This document shows, one piece after another, positions 3,647-30,640 of a stretch of 34,635 bases of DNA (position 1 is its first letter; every line of letters starts with the position of its first letter). The notes below the pieces were generated by a model. The model was not told the origin of the DNA, made no database searches, and saw only the letters and a list, made by a program, of their open reading frames with translations. Position numbers and translations under genes: made by a program. Origin of the DNA: a virus; IMG/VR virus record IMGVR_UViG_3300012532_000009, positions 1 to 34,635 of that record. One strand, 5' to 3'.

Positions 3647-4898
3647 CGAGAAGGGGAAGCTAGTCGCCAAACAGCGAGAGCTGCACACAAGCCTCGAGGC
3701 GACCGGGGAATGGAAGGCTGAGGACGAGGCGGAGTGGGTTGCGATCTCGAGGGAGATCGACGAGAAGTCTCGCCGTTTCGATCAGCTGAAGCAGATGCAG
3801 GAGATCGAGAAGGAGAACGCGGCTCAGCGTGAGGCGTTCGTTAAGATGATCGGGGCCGACCCGGTCGACAAGGCGAAGGAAGACCTTAACGCCCGGGTTC
3901 GGTCGTTCATGCGGGCCTCGCTTCCTGGTTCGCTGGAGTACGCCCCGAAGGCCATCGACGTCAGTATCTCTGACACCTACGGTGTCATGACCGATGGTCG
4001 CAGCGTGATGCGCGAGTACCACACGCTGACCAAGGGCGTGACCACGGCCGGTGGCTACCTGGTTCCCCAGGACTTCTCGCGAACCCTGATGATTCACTTG
4101 GTCAACATGGCGGCAGTTCGCCAGACCAATGCCAGGGTTCTTCGGACGTCCAACGGCCAGGCCCTGCCCGTGCCGAAGACGACCAGCTACGGCGCGTCTG
4201 CGATCGCAACTGAAGGTACGGCGCTGGCGGCCTCCGACCCGGCCTTTGGTCAGGTCTCGCTGGGAGCCTTCAAGTACGGCCAGATCATCCAGCTCTCGCG
4301 TGAGCTGGTTGAGGACGAGGCCGTGGATATCGTCGGATTCCTGGCGGAGAACGCCGGCCGCACGGTCGGACTCGCCAACGGGGCCGACTTGGTTGTGGGT
4401 GGCGGCTCGACCGCACCGCAGGGCGCGGCTGTTTCGCCGGTTCAGGGCATCGGTGGCAACATCGCCAATGCTGCGGCGCTGTCCGCCGACAACCTGATCG
4501 ACCTGTTCCACGGCATTAACGGCCCGTACCGGGCCAACGGATACTGGCTCATGAACGACCTGACGCTTGCGCAGGTGAGGAAATTCAAGGACACCACGAA
4601 CCAGTACCTCTGGCAGCCCGGGCTTACCGCCGGTGAGCCGGACAGCCTGTTGGGTAGGCCGATCGTGACCGACCCCAACGTGCTTCGTGCCGGTGCAGGT
4701 GCGGCCCTCGTGCTATTCGGGGACTTCAGCCTGTTCTACACGATTCGCGACGTGGATGGGATCCGGTTCGAGCGCAGCGACGACTACGCATTCGGGAACG
4801 ATCTTATCAGCTTCAGAGTGATTTTCCGCTCTGACGCGAAGCAGATCCTGAATGACACGACCAACTCGGCCGTGAAGGCAATCATCCTTACTGCGTAG
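3612..4898 (+). CDS. Major capsid protein, HK97 fold
   Basis: 428 aa. Residues 1-~95 are a charged coiled coil typical of the delta (scaffolding) domain removed by the protease. The HK97-fold body follows, with TAGGYLVPQDFSR, FKYGQIIQLSRELVEDEA, YWLMNDLTLAQVRKFKD, LLGRPIVTDPN and VLFGDFSLFYTIRD, the normal order for this family. ATG 3612 is preferred over a TTG at 3591 because GGAGAAGG lies just upstream. The gene overlaps the protease by 35 bases in another frame. Confidence 0.96.
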   Translation: MSVQELMRTLLDEKGKLVAKQRELHTSLEATGEWKAEDEAEWVAISREIDEKSRRFDQLKQMQEIEKENAAQREAFVKMIGADPVDKAKEDLNARVRSFMRASLPGSLEYAPKAIDVSISDTYGVMTDGRSVMREYHTLTKGVTTAGGYLVPQDFSRTLMIHLVNMAAVRQTNARVLRTSNGQALPVPKTTSYGASAIATEGTALAASDPAFGQVSLGAFKYGQIIQLSRELVEDEAVDIVGFLAENAGRTVGLANGADLVVGGGSTAPQGAAVSPVQGIGGNIANAAALSADNLIDLFHGINGPYRANGYWLMNDLTLAQVRKFKDTTNQYLWQPGLTAGEPDSLLGRPIVTDPNVLRAGAGAALVLFGDFSLFYTIRDVDGIRFERSDDYAFGNDLISFRVIFRSDAKQILNDTTNSAVKAIILTA

Positions 4899-4912
4899 CT
4901 CGGAGGGTGGGC

Positions 4913-5413
4913 ATGCGTGAGCTAGCCTGGGCGGCGGGTCTCTTCGAGGGCGAGGGATGCTTCGCTTTTAAGAAGGACTCGGCGCCCAGGGCGCTCGCGC
5001 AGATTCAGATGACGGATGAAGATGCGGTGCGGCGGTTTCATCAAGCCGTGGGCATCGGAAGCGTTAGTGGCCCCAGATCCTACGGCGATCGTCGTCCGTC
5101 ATGGGTGTGGAATGTTCAGAGTAATGAGGAGTTCCAGGCTATCGTGGCGATGCTCTGGTACGGGTTGGGGCAACGTCGCCGCGAGAAGGCAAGAGAAATC
5201 CTTGCAGCCGTTCGCCCCCATATGCGGCCACGCCGAGGCCGATCTCTATGCCGGAGGGGGCATTCGGATTGGTACCAGCGCCCAGACGGAGGCCGGCGCT
5301 GTCGCCCCTGCACACTTGAGCGGGTGCGAGATTGGGTGATGGCTAATCCCGACAAGCGGCGAGAAGCCGTGCGGCGTTACAACGCGAAGCGAAGGAGTGC
5401 AACATGGCACTGA
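4913..5413 (+). CDS. LAGLIDADG-type homing endonuclease, free-standing
   Basis: 166 aa. Residues ~4-17 carry one LAGLIDADG-like motif, AWAAGLFEGEGCF, followed by a mixed alpha/beta region normal for single-motif enzymes that act as homodimers. The C-terminus adds a zinc-finger-like CxxGH plus CxxC unit (LCRRGH, CRPC) and a basic helix, probably for DNA binding. ATG 4913 has GGAGGG five bases upstream. It lies between the capsid gene and the next virion gene and overlaps the latter by 10 bases, so it reads as an invader that kept the operon intact. Virion function is unlikely. Confidence 0.85.
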   Translation: MRELAWAAGLFEGEGCFAFKKDSAPRALAQIQMTDEDAVRRFHQAVGIGSVSGPRSYGDRRPSWVWNVQSNEEFQAIVAMLWYGLGQRRREKAREILAAVRPHMRPRRGRSLCRRGHSDWYQRPDGGRRCRPCTLERVRDWVMANPDKRREAVRRYNAKRRSATWH

Positions 5414-21164: not shown

Positions 21165-21347
21165 ATGTCGGATACCGAAGTGATTTTGTTGGCGGCAGGG
21201 GTCAGCGTCCTGACCGCGCTGATTGCCAGCGCGGGGTGCCAATTGAGCCACCGAACGCGGAACCAGCAGATGGACGAGCTTATCGCGATTCTGTCGGAGT
21301 TGTATCTTCGAAGGTCAGGCGGTTCACCGCTTCCCGAAGACGGGTAG
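21165..21347 (+). CDS. Small single-span membrane protein
   Basis: 60 aa. Residues ~5-23 (EVILLAAGVSVLTALIASA) form a span, followed by a charged helix (RNQQMDELIAILSEL). It is a plus-strand gene between two minus-strand genes and its 3' end overlaps the integrase 3' end by 68 bases. No ribosome site is seen. TTGAAA at about 21126 might be a promoter element. Moderate support. Confidence 0.42.
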   Translation: MSDTEVILLAAGVSVLTALIASAGCQLSHRTRNQQMDELIAILSELYLRRSGGSPLPEDG

Positions 21348-22194
21348 GACGGATCCGCGTGTAGATTGCCGTGACGGCTGGGGAAGAGTGTCCCAGGAAT
21401 TCTTGAACCGTTCGTAGGTCGCTGGTAGCCTCGAGAAGCATCGTTGCCGAGGTATGCCGAAGGATGTGGGGATACAGCCCCTCGATCCCTGCAGCCCGCC
21501 CCACCTTCCTCACGATCTCCTGGGCGGTGGTTTTGGACAGGGGCCGGCTCGAGTTGAAGGGAGAGGGGAAGATCCACTCCGCGCTCTGTTCGTGGACTTC
21601 CCATCGCCTAAGCGCCGCCACCGCGTCGGGGTGAAGCGGGATCTCCCGTTCCTTCTGACGCTTGCCCTTGAACCTCAGCCAGGCCTCCTCGACGTAGACC
21701 CATTTAAGAGTCCGACATTCTGTTAGCCGAAGGCCGGCGTAGAGGAACATGTGCATCATGGCGTTTGCCATCGGGCCGAACGCCGGTGCCACCACCAGGA
21801 GGGCTCTTGCTTCCTGCGCCGTGAGCGCCTTTGGAAGGGCCCTTGGTTCCTGGAGCCTGGGAAGGCCGAGGGCGTGGTTTACCTCTCCCATCTCCTGAGC
21901 CAGCATGAAGGCCCCGAAGGCCACGAGTGCTTGACGGCGGTTGTTCCGCGACCGCGGGTCGGGGGTGGTGGAGAACAACCACGCTTTCATATCGCGTGTC
22001 GTCGCCCAGAGCAACGACCTCCCGCGGTTCTGCTGGAGCCAGTGATCCGCGATCACAACGGTTCGGTAGTACTTGTCCCGCGTATTCGGCAGCCACCCTC
22101 TCTCGTCGAATCCCCAGCGTTCGAACTCCATGAAGATCCTCTCGCGGGCACGCACTGACATATCCTTTCTGATCTGTGCCCGACGTATCGGCAT
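21280..22194 (-). CDS. int: Tyrosine-type site-specific integrase
   Basis: 304 aa if the start is ATG 22194; ATG 22161 with AAAGGA is an alternative. The catalytic set is complete: Arg156 in YAGLRLTE, a basic beta-hairpin FKGKRQKEREI, His243-x-x-Arg246 in HILRH, His269 in LGHSS and nucleophile Tyr278 in AIYTR. The N-terminal ~115 residues form a SAM-like core-binding domain (TRDKYYRTVVIADHW). It would recombine attP with a chromosomal attB. The upstream repressor frame runs into this gene by about 490 bases. Confidence 0.93.
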   Translation of the reverse strand: MPIRRAQIRKDMSVRARERIFMEFERWGFDERGWLPNTRDKYYRTVVIADHWLQQNRGRSLLWATTRDMKAWLFSTTPDPRSRNNRRQALVAFGAFMLAQEMGEVNHALGLPRLQEPRALPKALTAQEARALLVVAPAFGPMANAMMHMFLYAGLRLTECRTLKWVYVEEAWLRFKGKRQKEREIPLHPDAVAALRRWEVHEQSAEWIFPSPFNSSRPLSKTTAQEIVRKVGRAAGIEGLYPHILRHTSATMLLEATSDLRTVQEFLGHSSPAVTAIYTRIRPTRLREAVNRLTFEDTTPTESR

Positions 22195-22531
22195 GAGAGG
22201 CCCCCCACTGGAGTGTGACAAACATGGCCGCGAGCAAGACGGCGGTCCGAGCTGCGTTCCACCGCCTGTTGGTGGAAGCGGAATCGGGAAGATGCTGGTC
22301 AGGAGCGACACTTCCGCAATATAACTTCCCGCTGGCCGCCATATGCTCAAGGAAATCGGGGGGCGATTCGCCGAAGTGGAAATAGATGTTACTCAGCTGC
22401 CGAAGGCTCGGTTGCCCTCCATGCTCCCACCGGCGCACGGTCATCACCGAGATTCCCAGCGCCCGCGCTAAGCCCTCCTGAGAGAGCCCGTACTTCGTCC
22501 GCAGGGCCCGGATCCACTCGGCGTAGCTCAT
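21704..22531 (-). CDS. HTH repressor candidate whose frame overlaps the integrase
   Basis: The N-terminal ~55 residues form an XRE/cI-type helix-turn-helix (KYGLSQEGLARALGISVMTV, then RRWEHGGQPSLRQLS). ATG 22531 is preferred since a promoter places the transcript start on it. The frame has no stop until 21704 (275 aa), but only the first ~110 residues look protein-like; the rest is the shadow of integrase coding. Either the gene truly overlaps by about 490 bases, a stop was lost by an indel, or the 3' end is changed upon integration. Opposite orientation to the early operon fits an immunity repressor. Confidence 0.68.
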   Translation of the reverse strand: MSYAEWIRALRTKYGLSQEGLARALGISVMTVRRWEHGGQPSLRQLSNIYFHFGESPPDFLEHMAASGKLYCGSVAPDQHLPDSASTNRRWNAARTAVLLAAMFVTLQWGASHADTSGTDQKGYVSACPREDLHGVRTLGIRRERVAAEYAGQVLPNRCDRGSLAPAEPREVVALGDDTRYESVVVLHHPRPAVAEQPPSSTRGLRGLHAGSGDGRGKPRPRPSQAPGTKGPSKGAHGAGSKSPPGGGTGVRPDGKRHDAHVPLRRPSANRMSDS

Positions 22532-25945: not shown

Positions 25946-26303
25946 GGCGGGCGACCGCCTTCATGTTGACCGGGGTGGGCCCGATATGCTCAGTGAGAAC
26001 GACACAGCGCCTGGCCCCGCCCCCGGTCCCTCTGGACGCAACCCCCGGGCCTGGTTGTATCTGCACCACGTCAAGCTCGAGATCAATGGAGCGCTGAAGC
26101 GGCTGATCGACTTCACCGTCGAGGACGTAGACGCCTTCACCCGAGACGCAGTCCGGTATCGCCGGGCGTGGGAAGCCCGCGTGGAGTTCGGGATTGCCGC
26201 GATGAAGAAGCTCACCGCCCGGCGTAAGAACAAGATCAGCCAGCTTCCTCAGAAGGACCAGGAAGAGCTCGAGGCGCTGGCGAGTGAGGCGTGGTCCCGG
26301 TGA
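25824..26303 (+). CDS. Hypothetical helical protein
   Basis: 159 aa from GTG 25824; ATG 25986 is an alternative that would avoid overlap with the small ORF. The C-terminal half is helical and basic (AAMKKLTARRKNKISQLPQK), the middle carries LKRLIDFTVEDVDAFTRDAV. Codon third positions are GC-rich, in favour of a real gene. No family recognised. Confidence 0.6.
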   Translation: MVDAAYDTGSLVSEIVDAKVDLAALDADTLTWFARVGLIREAGDRLHVDRGGPDMLSENDTAPGPAPGPSGRNPRAWLYLHHVKLEINGALKRLIDFTVEDVDAFTRDAVRYRRAWEARVEFGIAAMKKLTARRKNKISQLPQKDQEELEALASEAWSR

Positions 26304-27328
26304 GCGTAGTGGCCGAGGATCTAACTGAGACCGACGTCGGTGGTGGCTACACGCGCTACCGGGACCACCACACCGAAGAACTGGGGCAGCTGGCCAGTGC
26401 ATTTGACCAAGTGAGGAAGACGCGGCTGGCTCTAACCCAGCGCGGGCTCATGCCCCACTCCGCAGCCATCCTCAAGACCGAAGAGGCCCTGGGCCGAGCG
26501 TTGAACAAGACGCTCCGTGCCCACGCGGCATGGCCCTGGCTCTCTCAATTCCCCGGACTGGGTGGGGTACACACAGCGCGGCTCATCTCCCGCATAGGTG
26601 ATCCCCTGCGGTTCCCGGGCCGAGTATGCGCAAAGGGCCACCACTTGCCGAGTGATTACGCCGGCGAGGTGTGTGCGAGCCCGATATGGAACAGCCCCGA
26701 AGAGGTCCCTGAGGCCGATAGCCGCGATGGGGCTGAGGGTTGGGCGGGTGCCGACGAGGCAACCTGTGAGAACGAGACCGCGAATGCTGGCACCTGCCTA
26801 GCCCCGGTCGGGCCAATACGCCGCGGCACGGGAGTCCAGTCCCTTTGGCATTTCTGCGGGGTCCACGTAGTCGGCGGCCGCGCTCCGCGCTTGCGTAAGG
26901 GCGTGAAGGCCGACTGGGATCCCATCGCCCGGACCTGCCTTTTGATGCCGGGGGGAATTGCAGAGCAGATTGTCCGTCTCCGCGTGCCCGTGTATCGACA
27001 GAAGTATGAAGAAAAGAAAGCACTGCTAGCAAGCCTGCGGGGGGCCGAATGTCGCCTTGAGCCCGAGCGGAAGGATGATCCCCCGCAAGATATTCGCGGA
27101 GCCGCCTGGAGCAATGAGACCGAGGCCTTCAATGGCTCCGCTACGGGGGGGGCCGAAGACCTCGGTGAGCCCGATCTCCGAAATGGCCCCCTCCGCCCCT
27201 TTCAGATAGAAGGGATCGCTCGAAAGGTGGCGGCGAAGGCCTTCCTGGGCGATCTGTTGACGGCGTGGAAGCGGCTGGTCCTCGAGTGCCCCAGTGAGAC
27301 CGAGAAGGACTTTGGGGGCCAGCCGTGA
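26300..27328 (+). CDS. IS110-like transposase C-terminal domain protein, stand-alone
   Basis: 342 aa from GTG 26300. Residues ~79-105 (WLSQFPGLGGVHTARLISRI, then GDPLRF) match the helix-hairpin-helix opening of the IS110/IS116/IS902 Tnp domain. LWHFCGVHVVGG at ~182-193, RKGVKADWDPIARTCLL at ~199-215 and a late ARKVAAKAFLGDLLTAW also follow that family. The N-terminal DEDD RuvC-like domain is missing and the neighbouring gene does not supply it. Residues ~108-166 are a Cys/His-rich insertion (VCAKGHH, EVCAS, ATCEN, GTCLA), probably metal-binding. No catalytic-serine SG motif is obvious. More likely a domesticated DNA-binding factor than a mobile element. Confidence 0.62.
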   Translation: MSVVAEDLTETDVGGGYTRYRDHHTEELGQLASAFDQVRKTRLALTQRGLMPHSAAILKTEEALGRALNKTLRAHAAWPWLSQFPGLGGVHTARLISRIGDPLRFPGRVCAKGHHLPSDYAGEVCASPIWNSPEEVPEADSRDGAEGWAGADEATCENETANAGTCLAPVGPIRRGTGVQSLWHFCGVHVVGGRAPRLRKGVKADWDPIARTCLLMPGGIAEQIVRLRVPVYRQKYEEKKALLASLRGAECRLEPERKDDPPQDIRGAAWSNETEAFNGSATGGAEDLGEPDLRNGPLRPFQIEGIARKVAAKAFLGDLLTAWKRLVLECPSETEKDFGGQP

Positions 27329-29114: not shown

Positions 29115-29620
29115 GGCTCGGCCCGCTGATCCGCGAGTTCCGGTACGCCGTGAGGCCAGAGTACGCACCCTGGATGGCGGATGCGGCCTGCGCGGACATG
29201 GATCCAGACGTGTTCTTCTATCCAGACAACCGCACTGGTGGAAGTTACTACGACGAGGCCCGAGCGGCCTGCGCTTCATGTCCGGTTCTGACGGAATGTC
29301 GGGAGTGGGGAGATCGGGTGGAATCTGCGATACCGCCGAGCGGCTGGTTCGGGATGCTGGCCGGGGAAACACCGAGCGAGCGGAAGGCGCGGCGACATCG
29401 CCCGAATCAAAGCAAGTACCTAAAGCCGGCGTGCCGCCACGGGCACCCCTATGACGAGGCAAATACGCACATCCATACACGCCTTGACGGGGTTATCCAT
29501 CGGCGATGCCGCACCTGCAACAGGGCGAGGGTTTCCAGAGGAGAAGCTTCCAGGGGGCGAGCCAGGCTGACGGGGAAGGGGCCGGCTCGTTCCCTGGAAT
29601 CACCGCGGAGGTCGGCATAA
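29111..29620 (+). CDS. WhiB-family regulator with C-terminal zinc-finger extension
   Basis: 169 aa, GTG 29111 (GTGA). The four Fe-S cluster cysteines are Cys27, Cys54, Cys57 and Cys63 (AACADM; CASCPVLTEC), followed by the turn GWFGMLAG in place of the usual GVWGG-type loop and a basic stretch ERKARRHR. Actinophage WhiB proteins can bind host sigma factor and block superinfection or septation. Residues ~107-140 add a CxxGH plus CRTC knuckle (Cys108, Cys133, Cys136) of the kind seen in phage homing nucleases, so this is a fusion. It fixes the host phylum as Actinobacteria. Confidence 0.83.
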   Translation: MRLGPLIREFRYAVRPEYAPWMADAACADMDPDVFFYPDNRTGGSYYDEARAACASCPVLTECREWGDRVESAIPPSGWFGMLAGETPSERKARRHRPNQSKYLKPACRHGHPYDEANTHIHTRLDGVIHRRCRTCNRARVSRGEASRGRARLTGKGPARSLESPRRSA

Positions 29621-29634
29621 AGGCCATAATAAGC

Positions 29635-29774
29635 GTGGCCCGGGTAGGCCGGGGTAGCTCAACAGGGAGAGCACCGGGAAGCGGCGGAGAGGAACTCGGC
29701 CGATCCGCTATCACCCGTCCCCAGTACCGGATGTTGCGGGTTCGAGTCCCGTCCCCGGCTGATTCCCGGGCCAC
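29635..29774. repeat. Perfect 10-bp inverted repeat flanking the tRNA-like gene
   Basis: GTGGCCCGGG (29635-29644) and CCCGGGCCAC (29765-29774) are exact complements lying three bases before and four after the tRNA-like element. Together with the acceptor stem they would form a long interrupted helix in the precursor, perhaps a processing signal. Confidence 0.7.
29648..29760 (+). tRNA. tRNA-like gene with oversized anticodon loop
   Basis: The acceptor stem GCCGGGG/CCCCGGC is a perfect 7 bp. D-arm GCTC-AACAGGGA-GAGC has the standard GG; T-arm GCGGG-TTCGAGT-CCCGT is standard. Variable loop ATGTT, discriminator T, no encoded CCA. The anticodon stem is CCGG (29674-29677) with CCGG (29727-29730), leaving 48-49 nt where 7 are normal. 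An internal hairpin GCGGA/TCCGC sits in the excess. Removing 40 nt (29678-29717) would give a perfect CCGGT/ACCGG stem and loop CCCCAGT, anticodon CCA (Trp) but without U33. Intron-bearing tRNA, decayed tRNA or tRNA mimic; identity uncertain. Confidence 0.65.
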
Positions 29775-29792
29775 TTCGCCGAAGGGCGCGGC

Positions 29793-30311
29793 GTGACTAA
29801 GCGCCCACGCCGTCACTCTAAACGCGGCCGCTGTCATTGTGGCGACTTCCACGGCGACTCGCCCAGAACAGCCGACGCGGTGTGGGTGGACCTCGAGGCC
29901 ATCATTGGCCAGGCCAAGCTCCTTCAATCCCGCTACGCCCACGCCCACGACTACGCCTACTCGAGCCACGGCTACGGGAGCGAGTTCCAGGGCGTGGGCA
30001 AGATCCAGTCATATTGCGATGGCCGGGAAAGCGAAGGTGGCTCGACCGCCTCTCTGGGAAGCACCGACCCGGACAACCCCAAGAAGAAGCTTCGTGGACA
30101 TGTCAACAACGCGGACCAGCAAATCGCGGAGGCCTACTCCAAGATCCGGGCTGCATTCACCGCGCTGGACAAGGTATACGGTCGGCGCAACTCCGAAGCT
30201 CGGCCTGTGGCGCGGCCGGTCGTGGATGCGGGCTTCCGGTACAGCAAGGGGCCCGAGATCGAGGCCCTCAAAGAGAAACAGCGTAGCCGCTGGGAGCGGG
30301 GCGAGGAATGA
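29793..30311 (+). CDS. Hypothetical protein
   Basis: 172 aa, GTG 29793, weak GAAGGG site. Basic N-terminus with a CHC pair and His (RGRCHCGDFHGD), His/Tyr-rich centre (YAHAHDYAYSSHGYG), then helices (NNADQQIAEAYSKIRAAFTA). Metal binding is plausible. No family recognised. Overlaps the methyltransferase-like gene by ATGA. Confidence 0.6.
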   Translation: MTKRPRRHSKRGRCHCGDFHGDSPRTADAVWVDLEAIIGQAKLLQSRYAHAHDYAYSSHGYGSEFQGVGKIQSYCDGRESEGGSTASLGSTDPDNPKKKLRGHVNNADQQIAEAYSKIRAAFTALDKVYGRRNSEARPVARPVVDAGFRYSKGPEIEALKEKQRSRWERGEE

Positions 30312-30640
30312 CCGAGTGGGAGATCCGCGTGGGTGACGTCCGCGACGTGCTTAGCCTGCCGCTGCTGCGGAACCTTCGATCTGTCTGGACCATCCCGACC
30401 GAACCATTCCCCCAAGCCCACTTCGCCACATTCCCCAAGGCCCTAGTCGAGCCCTGCATCAAGGCTGGCTCCCGGCCAGGTGACCTGGTGCTTGATCCTT
30501 TCGCCGGCTCGGGAACGACCGGCGTGGTGGCCCTCCAGCCCAGTCGGCGGTTCATCGGGATCGATCTCTCGCCCGTCTACGCGGAGATGGCCGAACGGCG
30601 AATCCACAACGAATGTGGGCTTTGGTCGGTGATGTCATGA
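30308..30640 (+). CDS. DNA methyltransferase-like protein lacking the catalytic motif
   Basis: 110 aa. The start IRVGDVRDVL resembles the first strand of beta-class N4/N6 methyltransferases, and VWTIPTEPFPQAHFATFP plus DPFAGSGTTG (residues 63-72, SAM-binding motif I) and RFIGIDLSPVY belong to their last third. The segment that should lie between, including the (D/S)PPY catalytic motif, is absent, apparently by an in-frame deletion. It could bind SAM but should not methylate unless a partner supplies the motif; I see none in this window. Confidence 0.75.
   Translation: MTEWEIRVGDVRDVLSLPLLRNLRSVWTIPTEPFPQAHFATFPKALVEPCIKAGSRPGDLVLDPFAGSGTTGVVALQPSRRFIGIDLSPVYAEMAERRIHNECGLWSVMS

What the first reader, a model, noticed from the sequence alone, without database searches (positions are those of the whole stretch)
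29635..29774. tRNA-like gene with a 48-nt anticodon loop inside a perfect 10-bp outer inverted repeat
Acceptor, D and T arms, variable loop and flanks are all regular, but the anticodon loop is about 41 nt too long and contains its own hairpin. Removal of 29678-29717 restores a perfect 5-bp stem (anticodon CCA, but no U33). The flanking repeat GTGGCCCGGG/CCCGGGCCAC is exact. Possibilities: intron-bearing phage tRNA, decoy or mimic RNA, or decayed tRNA kept for its ends.
Basis: seen in the sequence. Interest (0 to 1): 0.62.

Follow-up and report, generated by a model that had tools for sequence, protein, structure and literature searches.

The report
Clamped tRNA-like RNA in an actinophage
A virus of actinobacteria carries a gene for an RNA that folds like a transfer RNA but has an extra 40-base piece where the codon-reading loop should be and a perfect 10-base-pair clamp around it, so it more likely imitates a transfer RNA than works as one; what it does is not yet shown.

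Summary
Window 29648-29760 is a real tRNA-like gene (Rfam tRNA 48.6 bits, cut-off 29; 0 look-alikes in 60 simulated windows). Acceptor, D and T stems are fully paired. One 40-nt insertion sits in the anticodon arm, inside an exact 10-bp flanking inverted repeat (P about 1e-4 to 1e-3).

Removing the 40 nt gives a gap-free 73-mer. Its anticodon and T half resemble tRNA-Trp(CCA), but its acceptor, D arm and U73 resemble tRNA-Thr, and the loop is CCCCAGU (no U33). No intron placement tried gives a canonical arm. Archaeal splice motif, Rfam self-splicing introns, RNA ligase and RtcB were sought in the window and not found.

It is not alone: two capped scans of viral contigs gave about 90 and 60 tRNA-like genes with anticodon-region insertions. 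One sub-family ('group A') looks like true short introns with a covarying hairpin; the window is not a member. Clamps of 9 bp or more occurred in 5 of 94 others against 0 of 661 ordinary tRNAs, but a pre-stated replication gave 0 of 59.

Best reading: a non-decoding tRNA mimic, perhaps a decoy (0.42). Rivals: relic, spliced tRNA, cis-acting element. No close homologue was found; function is inferred.

The parts
29635..29644 (+). 5' arm of the 10-bp clamp, GTGGCCCGGG
   Evidence: exact inverted repeat with 29765-29774; paired in the minimum-energy fold
29648..29760 (+). tRNA-like gene, 113 nt, discriminator U at 29760, no encoded CCA
   Evidence: Rfam RF00005, 48.6 bits
29648..29677 (+). 5' tRNA part: acceptor strand, D arm, A26 and 5' anticodon strand CCGG
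   Evidence: read from sequence; 5' acceptor and D arm as in phage tRNA-Thr genes
29678..29717 (+). 40-nt insertion with its own hairpin; edges carry the near-repeat CACCGG (29672-29677) / CACCCG (29712-29717), so the exact ends are ambiguous
   Evidence: single 40-nt gap against intact tRNAs; fold
29718..29760 (+). 3' tRNA part: rest of anticodon arm, variable loop, T arm, acceptor strand
   Evidence: similar to tRNA-Trp(CCA) in anticodon arm and T arm
29765..29774 (+). 3' arm of the clamp, CCCGGGCCAC
   Evidence: exact inverted repeat
29174..29620 (+). upstream WhiB-like gene (context)
   Evidence: Pfam PF02467, E 8.9e-12
29793..30311 (+). downstream ORF of unknown function (context); start codon is a guess
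   Evidence: open frame; no Pfam or PHROG match; no relative in viral contigs

Best explanation
It is a phage-encoded, non-decoding tRNA-like RNA of up to about 140 nt. Read in the same direction as the whiB-like gene and ORF 29793, it would fold into the usual tRNA elbow (D and T arms) and acceptor stem, with the anticodon arm replaced by a longer structured arm and the 5' and 3' ends held by a 10-bp clamp. The clamp would hinder leader and trailer removal and protect the ends; the missing anticodon loop would stop decoding and deny anticodon nucleases their cut site. It would act by binding proteins that recognise the tRNA elbow or acceptor, for example as a decoy for tRNA-cutting defences or toxins. 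Shown here: anatomy, intact pairing, exact clamp, lack of a consistent isotype, and that rebuilt anticodon regions recur in phage tRNA-like genes. Inferred: transcription, stability, partner and decoy role.
For: All 7+4+5 tRNA stem pairs and all 10 clamp pairs are intact although the sequence is about 20% or more away from the nearest tRNAs found. The elbow nucleotides (U8-A14, A15-U48, G18G19, U54-A58, C56, C13-G22-G46) are in place (read with standard tRNA numbering). The clamp is unlikely by chance and the 140-nt fold beats shuffles. Isotype signals conflict: acceptor, D arm and U73 as in tRNA-Thr, anticodon arm as in tRNA-Trp, loop CCCCAGU without U33. Other phages carry tRNA-like genes in which no canonical arm is recovered, some conserved between contigs (L060/L249, L216/L251/L260, L234/L281/L279). 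[quoted passage not shown]
Against: No close homologue, hence no covariation test for this element. No expression data. No promoter recognised. The clamp enrichment in a first set (5/94 against 0/661 ordinary tRNAs) failed a stated replication (0/59). The insert arm is no more stable than shuffles. Intact stems also fit a recently disrupted tRNA.
Confidence: 0.42

Rival explanations
1. Relic: a Trp/Thr-type phage tRNA was disrupted by a 40-nt insertion and is no longer used; intact stems reflect a recent event.
For: Single clean 40-nt gap against intact tRNAs; insert edges carry the near-repeat CACCGG/CACCCG, as after an insertion or slippage; U33, A37 and A38 of the Trp loop are changed; it is the only tRNA-like gene in the record.
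Against: None of the tRNA stem pairs is broken; the acceptor differs from that of tRNA-Trp yet is fully paired; a relic does not explain the exact 10-bp clamp.
Confidence: 0.28
2. Spliced tRNA: the 40 nt are a short intron in the anticodon stem; cutting and ligation by host or unknown enzymes give a tRNA with anticodon CCA.
For: Removal gives a 73-mer that ARAGORN calls tRNA-Trp(CCA) and that matches phage tRNA-Trp genes at E 5e-8 to 6e-7. The best split lies after position 29 or 30, close to the place used by the group A inserts of other phages, where removal leaves canonical arms.
Against: No U33, and G37 beside A36; acceptor and U73 are not Trp-like. Model R1 of group A does not match the window. 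No bulge-helix-bulge motif. No Rfam intron. No RNA_ligase or RtcB in the record, although the host could supply RtcB.
Confidence: 0.2
3. Cis-acting element: the clamp and tRNA-like fold act within the whiB-ORF 29793 transcript, for example as a processing site for RNase P or another RNase that sets the start of the downstream message.
For: It fills the gap between the two genes, 15 nt after one stop and 19 nt before the next (presumed) start, and no promoter was recognised.
Against: No relative of the downstream gene was found to test linkage; loci matching the C-terminal region of the WhiB-like protein have no tRNA-like gene nearby. A perfect clamp over the leader would be expected to hinder RNase P.
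Confidence: 0.1

Closest known systems
Phage and plasmid tRNA-Trp(CCA) and phage tRNA-Thr genes
   Same: Same cloverleaf core. Anticodon and T half as in tRNA-Trp (L155 plasmid stretch, E 3e-10; Mycobacterium phage AlleyCat, 6e-7). Acceptor, D arm and U73 as in tRNA-Thr (L172).
   Different: 40-nt insertion, exact clamp, no U33, mixed isotype signals.
Bacterial Y RNAs (YrlA; Deinococcus Y RNA, RF01053 and RF02553)
   Same: 90-150 nt, stem formed by the paired 5' and 3' ends plus a tRNA-like domain that mimics D, T and acceptor arms (PMC8394870). RF01053 matches 29637-29775 over its full length, weakly (21.8 bits, cut-off 80).
   Different: No Ro60/TROVE gene in the record. In YrlA the T arm precedes the D arm, so the tRNA-like part is permuted; here it runs in normal tRNA order and the clamp extends the acceptor stem.
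Group A inserts in phage tRNAs (defined here, model R1)
   Same: Short insertion (about 41-52 nt) in the 5' strand of the anticodon stem of phage tRNAs.
   Different: They have a covarying hairpin plus a CAGCAA or CTGCAA motif and leave canonical loops with U33; the window has none of these.
Archaeal tRNA introns (bulge-helix-bulge)
   Same: Short and in the anticodon arm.
   Different: No bulge-helix-bulge motif; gene content (whiB) points to an actinobacterial host.
Group I and II introns of bacterial tRNAs
   Same: Interrupt a tRNA in the anticodon arm (PMC4033280).
   Different: 40 nt is far too short for a catalytic core; no Rfam match.

Membership tests
tRNA (decoding) | cloverleaf with acceptor, D and T arms | tested here: met
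   RF00005 48.6 bits over cut-off 29
tRNA (decoding) | 7-nt anticodon loop with U33, directly or after removing one piece | tested here: not met
   loop region of 49 nt; best joined form CCCCAGU has C33
tRNA (decoding) | agreement between anticodon and acceptor identity | tested here: not met
   Trp-like arm with Thr-like acceptor and U73
tRNA (decoding) | processed, CCA-ended and charged | not testable with these tools
   needs RNA work
Archaeal-type intron tRNA | bulge-helix-bulge at the splice sites | tested here: not met
   0 motifs in the window; 24 of 500 shuffles have one; the strict test finds 3 of 10 archaeal genes, so sensitivity is low
Group I/II intron tRNA | conserved catalytic core | tested here: not met
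   no such Rfam match; insert is 40 nt
Group A phage tRNA inserts | covarying hairpin plus CAGCAA/CTGCAA motif, canonical loop after removal | tested here: not met
   R1 with filters off gives no match overlapping the element
Bacterial Y RNA | stem of paired ends plus tRNA-like domain | tested here: met
Bacterial Y RNA | match to a Y RNA model at its cut-off | tested here: not met
   RF01053 21.8 bits against 80; RF02553 not listed
Bacterial Y RNA | Ro60 (TROVE) gene close by | tested here: not met
   none in the 34.6-kb record; a host copy cannot be tested
tmRNA | tRNA-like ends with a tag reading frame | tested here: not met
   ARAGORN and Rfam report none in the window
Phage attachment site on a tRNA end | next to the integrase gene | tested here: not met
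   integrase at 21280-22350, 7.3 kb away; host junction not available

The most novel reading that the evidence does not exclude
Phages carry a class of stable, non-decoding tRNA mimics with a clamp stem and a rebuilt anticodon arm, used against tRNA-targeting defences or to occupy tRNA-binding enzymes; the window's RNA is one of them.
Probability: 0.25. Interest if true: 0.72.

Novelty: new variant of a known kind. Interest (0 to 1): 0.48.

Why it matters
A review describes bacterial tRNA genes as structurally uniform, with group I and II introns as the only significant exception (PMC4033280). If phage tRNA-like genes with rebuilt anticodon regions make stable RNAs, some odd or overlooked phage tRNAs are not for translation. 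That bears on the open question of why phages carry tRNAs, and the decoy idea can be tested directly. The group A inserts found on the way would be a short-intron type that this review does not list for bacteria.

Tried and rejected
Relatives through neighbouring proteins gave no locus with the element. DNA patterns of the element gave ordinary tRNAs, prophage tRNA-end fragments and unrelated long-arm tRNAs; the cellular ones with intact acceptors were mostly archaeal. Y RNA: architecture alike, membership not met (see table). Bulge-helix-bulge: the first version of my test missed archaeal positives and was relaxed. Nested mini-tRNA insert, as in L048 and L031: there is no T arm in the window's insert. 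ARAGORN intron mode calls nearly everything. Clamp as a class mark: enriched in the first set, not reproduced in the second. T4 RNA ligase 1 in group A phages: 1 of 22 records only. One search failed on wrong coordinates and was repeated.

Full report
What is there. Window 29635-29774 holds a tRNA-like gene inside an exact 10-bp inverted repeat. Rfam's tRNA model covers 29648-29760 with 48.6 bits (cut-off 29) and leaves 49 nt between the anticodon stem strands CCGG/CCGG. ARAGORN in normal mode misses it. A structural finder gives this one hit in the window and none in 60 simulated windows. Acceptor 7/7, D 4/4 and T 5/5 pairs are intact and the elbow nucleotides are in place. The whole 140 nt folds better than shuffles (z -3.3); the insert arm on its own does not (z 0.0). 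The clamp has a chance probability of about 1e-4 at local composition and 1e-3 at 80% GC.

Context. The record is a 34.6-kb virus contig with terminase, integrase, WhiB, MerR, NinG-like and DNA methylase genes. WhiB and matches to actinophage replication proteins point to an actinobacterial host. The element lies between the whiB-like gene and an unknown gene, 15 and 19 nt away. No promoter or terminator was recognised. TROVE, RNA_ligase and RtcB were not found in the record.

What it derives from. Against intact tRNAs there is one gap of exactly 40 nt and no other indel. The joined 73-mer matches annotated tRNA-Trp genes of phages (E 5e-8 and 6e-7) and an unannotated tRNA-Trp-like stretch of a Mycolicibacterium plasmid (E 3e-10), chiefly in the anticodon and T half. 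The 5' sequence GCCGGGGTAGCTCAA..GG.AGAGCAC occurs in phage genes that ARAGORN calls tRNA-Thr, and in one of them (L172) the 3' acceptor strand and U73 also agree. The would-be anticodon loop is CCCCAGU, without U33. The insert edges carry a near-repeat CACCGG/CACCCG. Isotype signals therefore conflict, and no intron placement tried gives a canonical arm.

Comparison with other phages. Of the matches, 89 genes (window included) have at least 6/7 acceptor pairs. In 24, removing one piece from the 5' strand of the anticodon stem leaves a good canonical arm, with sensible anticodons such as Asn, Thr, Ile and Lys. I aligned 18 of those with the CAGCAA-type motif: their hairpin covaries (91.7% of cells paired; 29 double changes against 7.7 in shuffles, none of 500 as high). 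The alignment was set up around that hairpin, and related sequences inflate such counts, but slid versions fall to about 50% paired. Model R1 built from them finds its own members plus weaker ones, a few in a second set of loci, and not the window's element. The Aeromonas phage Aeh1 gene annotated as a 122-nt tRNA-Val is a weak match. In bacterial and archaeal genomes, a CCGG-stem version of the pattern found mainly archaeal tRNAs among the intact ones, plus a few bacterial ones.

The clamp. Among the other 94 long-insert candidates of the first set, five have a flanking perfect repeat of 9 bp or more (L122, L119, L090, L068, L037), against none of 661 ordinary tRNAs in the same loci (p 2.7e-5). 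I wrote down a replication before the last scan. It failed: 0 of 59 new candidates and 1 of 496 ordinary tRNAs. Pooled, 5/153 against 1/1157 gives p 1.1e-4. The class claim is therefore tentative, and the counts treat loci as independent, which they may not be.

Known systems. Y RNAs combine a stem of paired ends with a tRNA-like domain (PMC8394870), and RF01053 matches the element over its full length but far below its cut-off. Ro60 was not found in the record, and in the YrlA model the T arm precedes the D arm, unlike here. I do not file it as a Y RNA, though it may work like one as a tRNA mimic. Archaeal-type and self-splicing introns were tested and not met; my archaeal motif test is strict and finds only 3 of 10 archaeal genes, so it is weak evidence.

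Verdict. Most likely a non-decoding tRNA mimic (0.42), then relic (0.28), spliced tRNA (0.2), cis element (0.1). Anatomy is shown; expression, partner and role are inferred. No homologue of this particular element was found, which limits every functional claim. The literature library holds only openly licensed papers, so the absence of reports on short phage tRNA introns there is weak evidence of novelty.

Noticed in passing
L065:2144-2211, L124:4675-4740 and 4887-4952, L009:4170-4241 (and more): Group A: phage tRNAs with a short insert in the 5' strand of the anticodon stem, holding a covarying hairpin and a CAGCAA/CTGCAA motif; removal leaves canonical arms. They look like a family of short tRNA introns; no Rfam family but tRNA was matched.
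   Followed up: partly
L048, L031, L020, L103 (positions and the loci files): Inserts near the anticodon that themselves look like a mini-tRNA (acceptor-like stem plus T arm); in L048 and L031 a CCA follows the stem, and removal leaves CTTTTAA or CTTATAA loops. Excision by RNase P plus 3' processing is an untested idea.
   Followed up: no
L096 and L242 (viral), L152 (Victivallales MAG): A third insert type sharing a motif like ACTTTCCGCTTATAGC...AAAGTTCCT...AGGA in the anticodon arm.
   Followed up: no
L060:3411-3522 and L249; L216/L251/L260; L234/L281/L279; L077/L082: Pairs or trios of different contigs share tRNA-like genes from which no canonical anticodon arm is recovered, suggesting conserved non-decoding tRNA-like RNAs.
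   Followed up: no
L130:3866-3997 (-): A YrlA-like RNA (RF02553, 36.0 bits, below cut-off 69, E 8e-6) about 1 kb from a long-arm tRNA-like gene, with no TROVE match in the 30.7-kb record.
   Followed up: partly
L007:5396-5415, L006:107-126, L008:14781-14800: Partial tRNA 3' ends that look like prophage attachment junctions rather than tRNA genes.
   Followed up: no
window 30308-30640: DNA methylase ORF of 110 aa that matches mainly the C-terminal part of the Pfam model, so it appears shortened.
   Followed up: no
window 26291-27328: ORF matching a PHROG family annotated as transposase (phrog_4285, E 1.7e-26) within the replication region.
   Followed up: no
window 29638-29657: Leader GGCCCGGGTA nearly repeats GGCCGGGGTA at the start of the tRNA-like part, as if an acceptor strand had been duplicated to make the clamp.
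   Followed up: no
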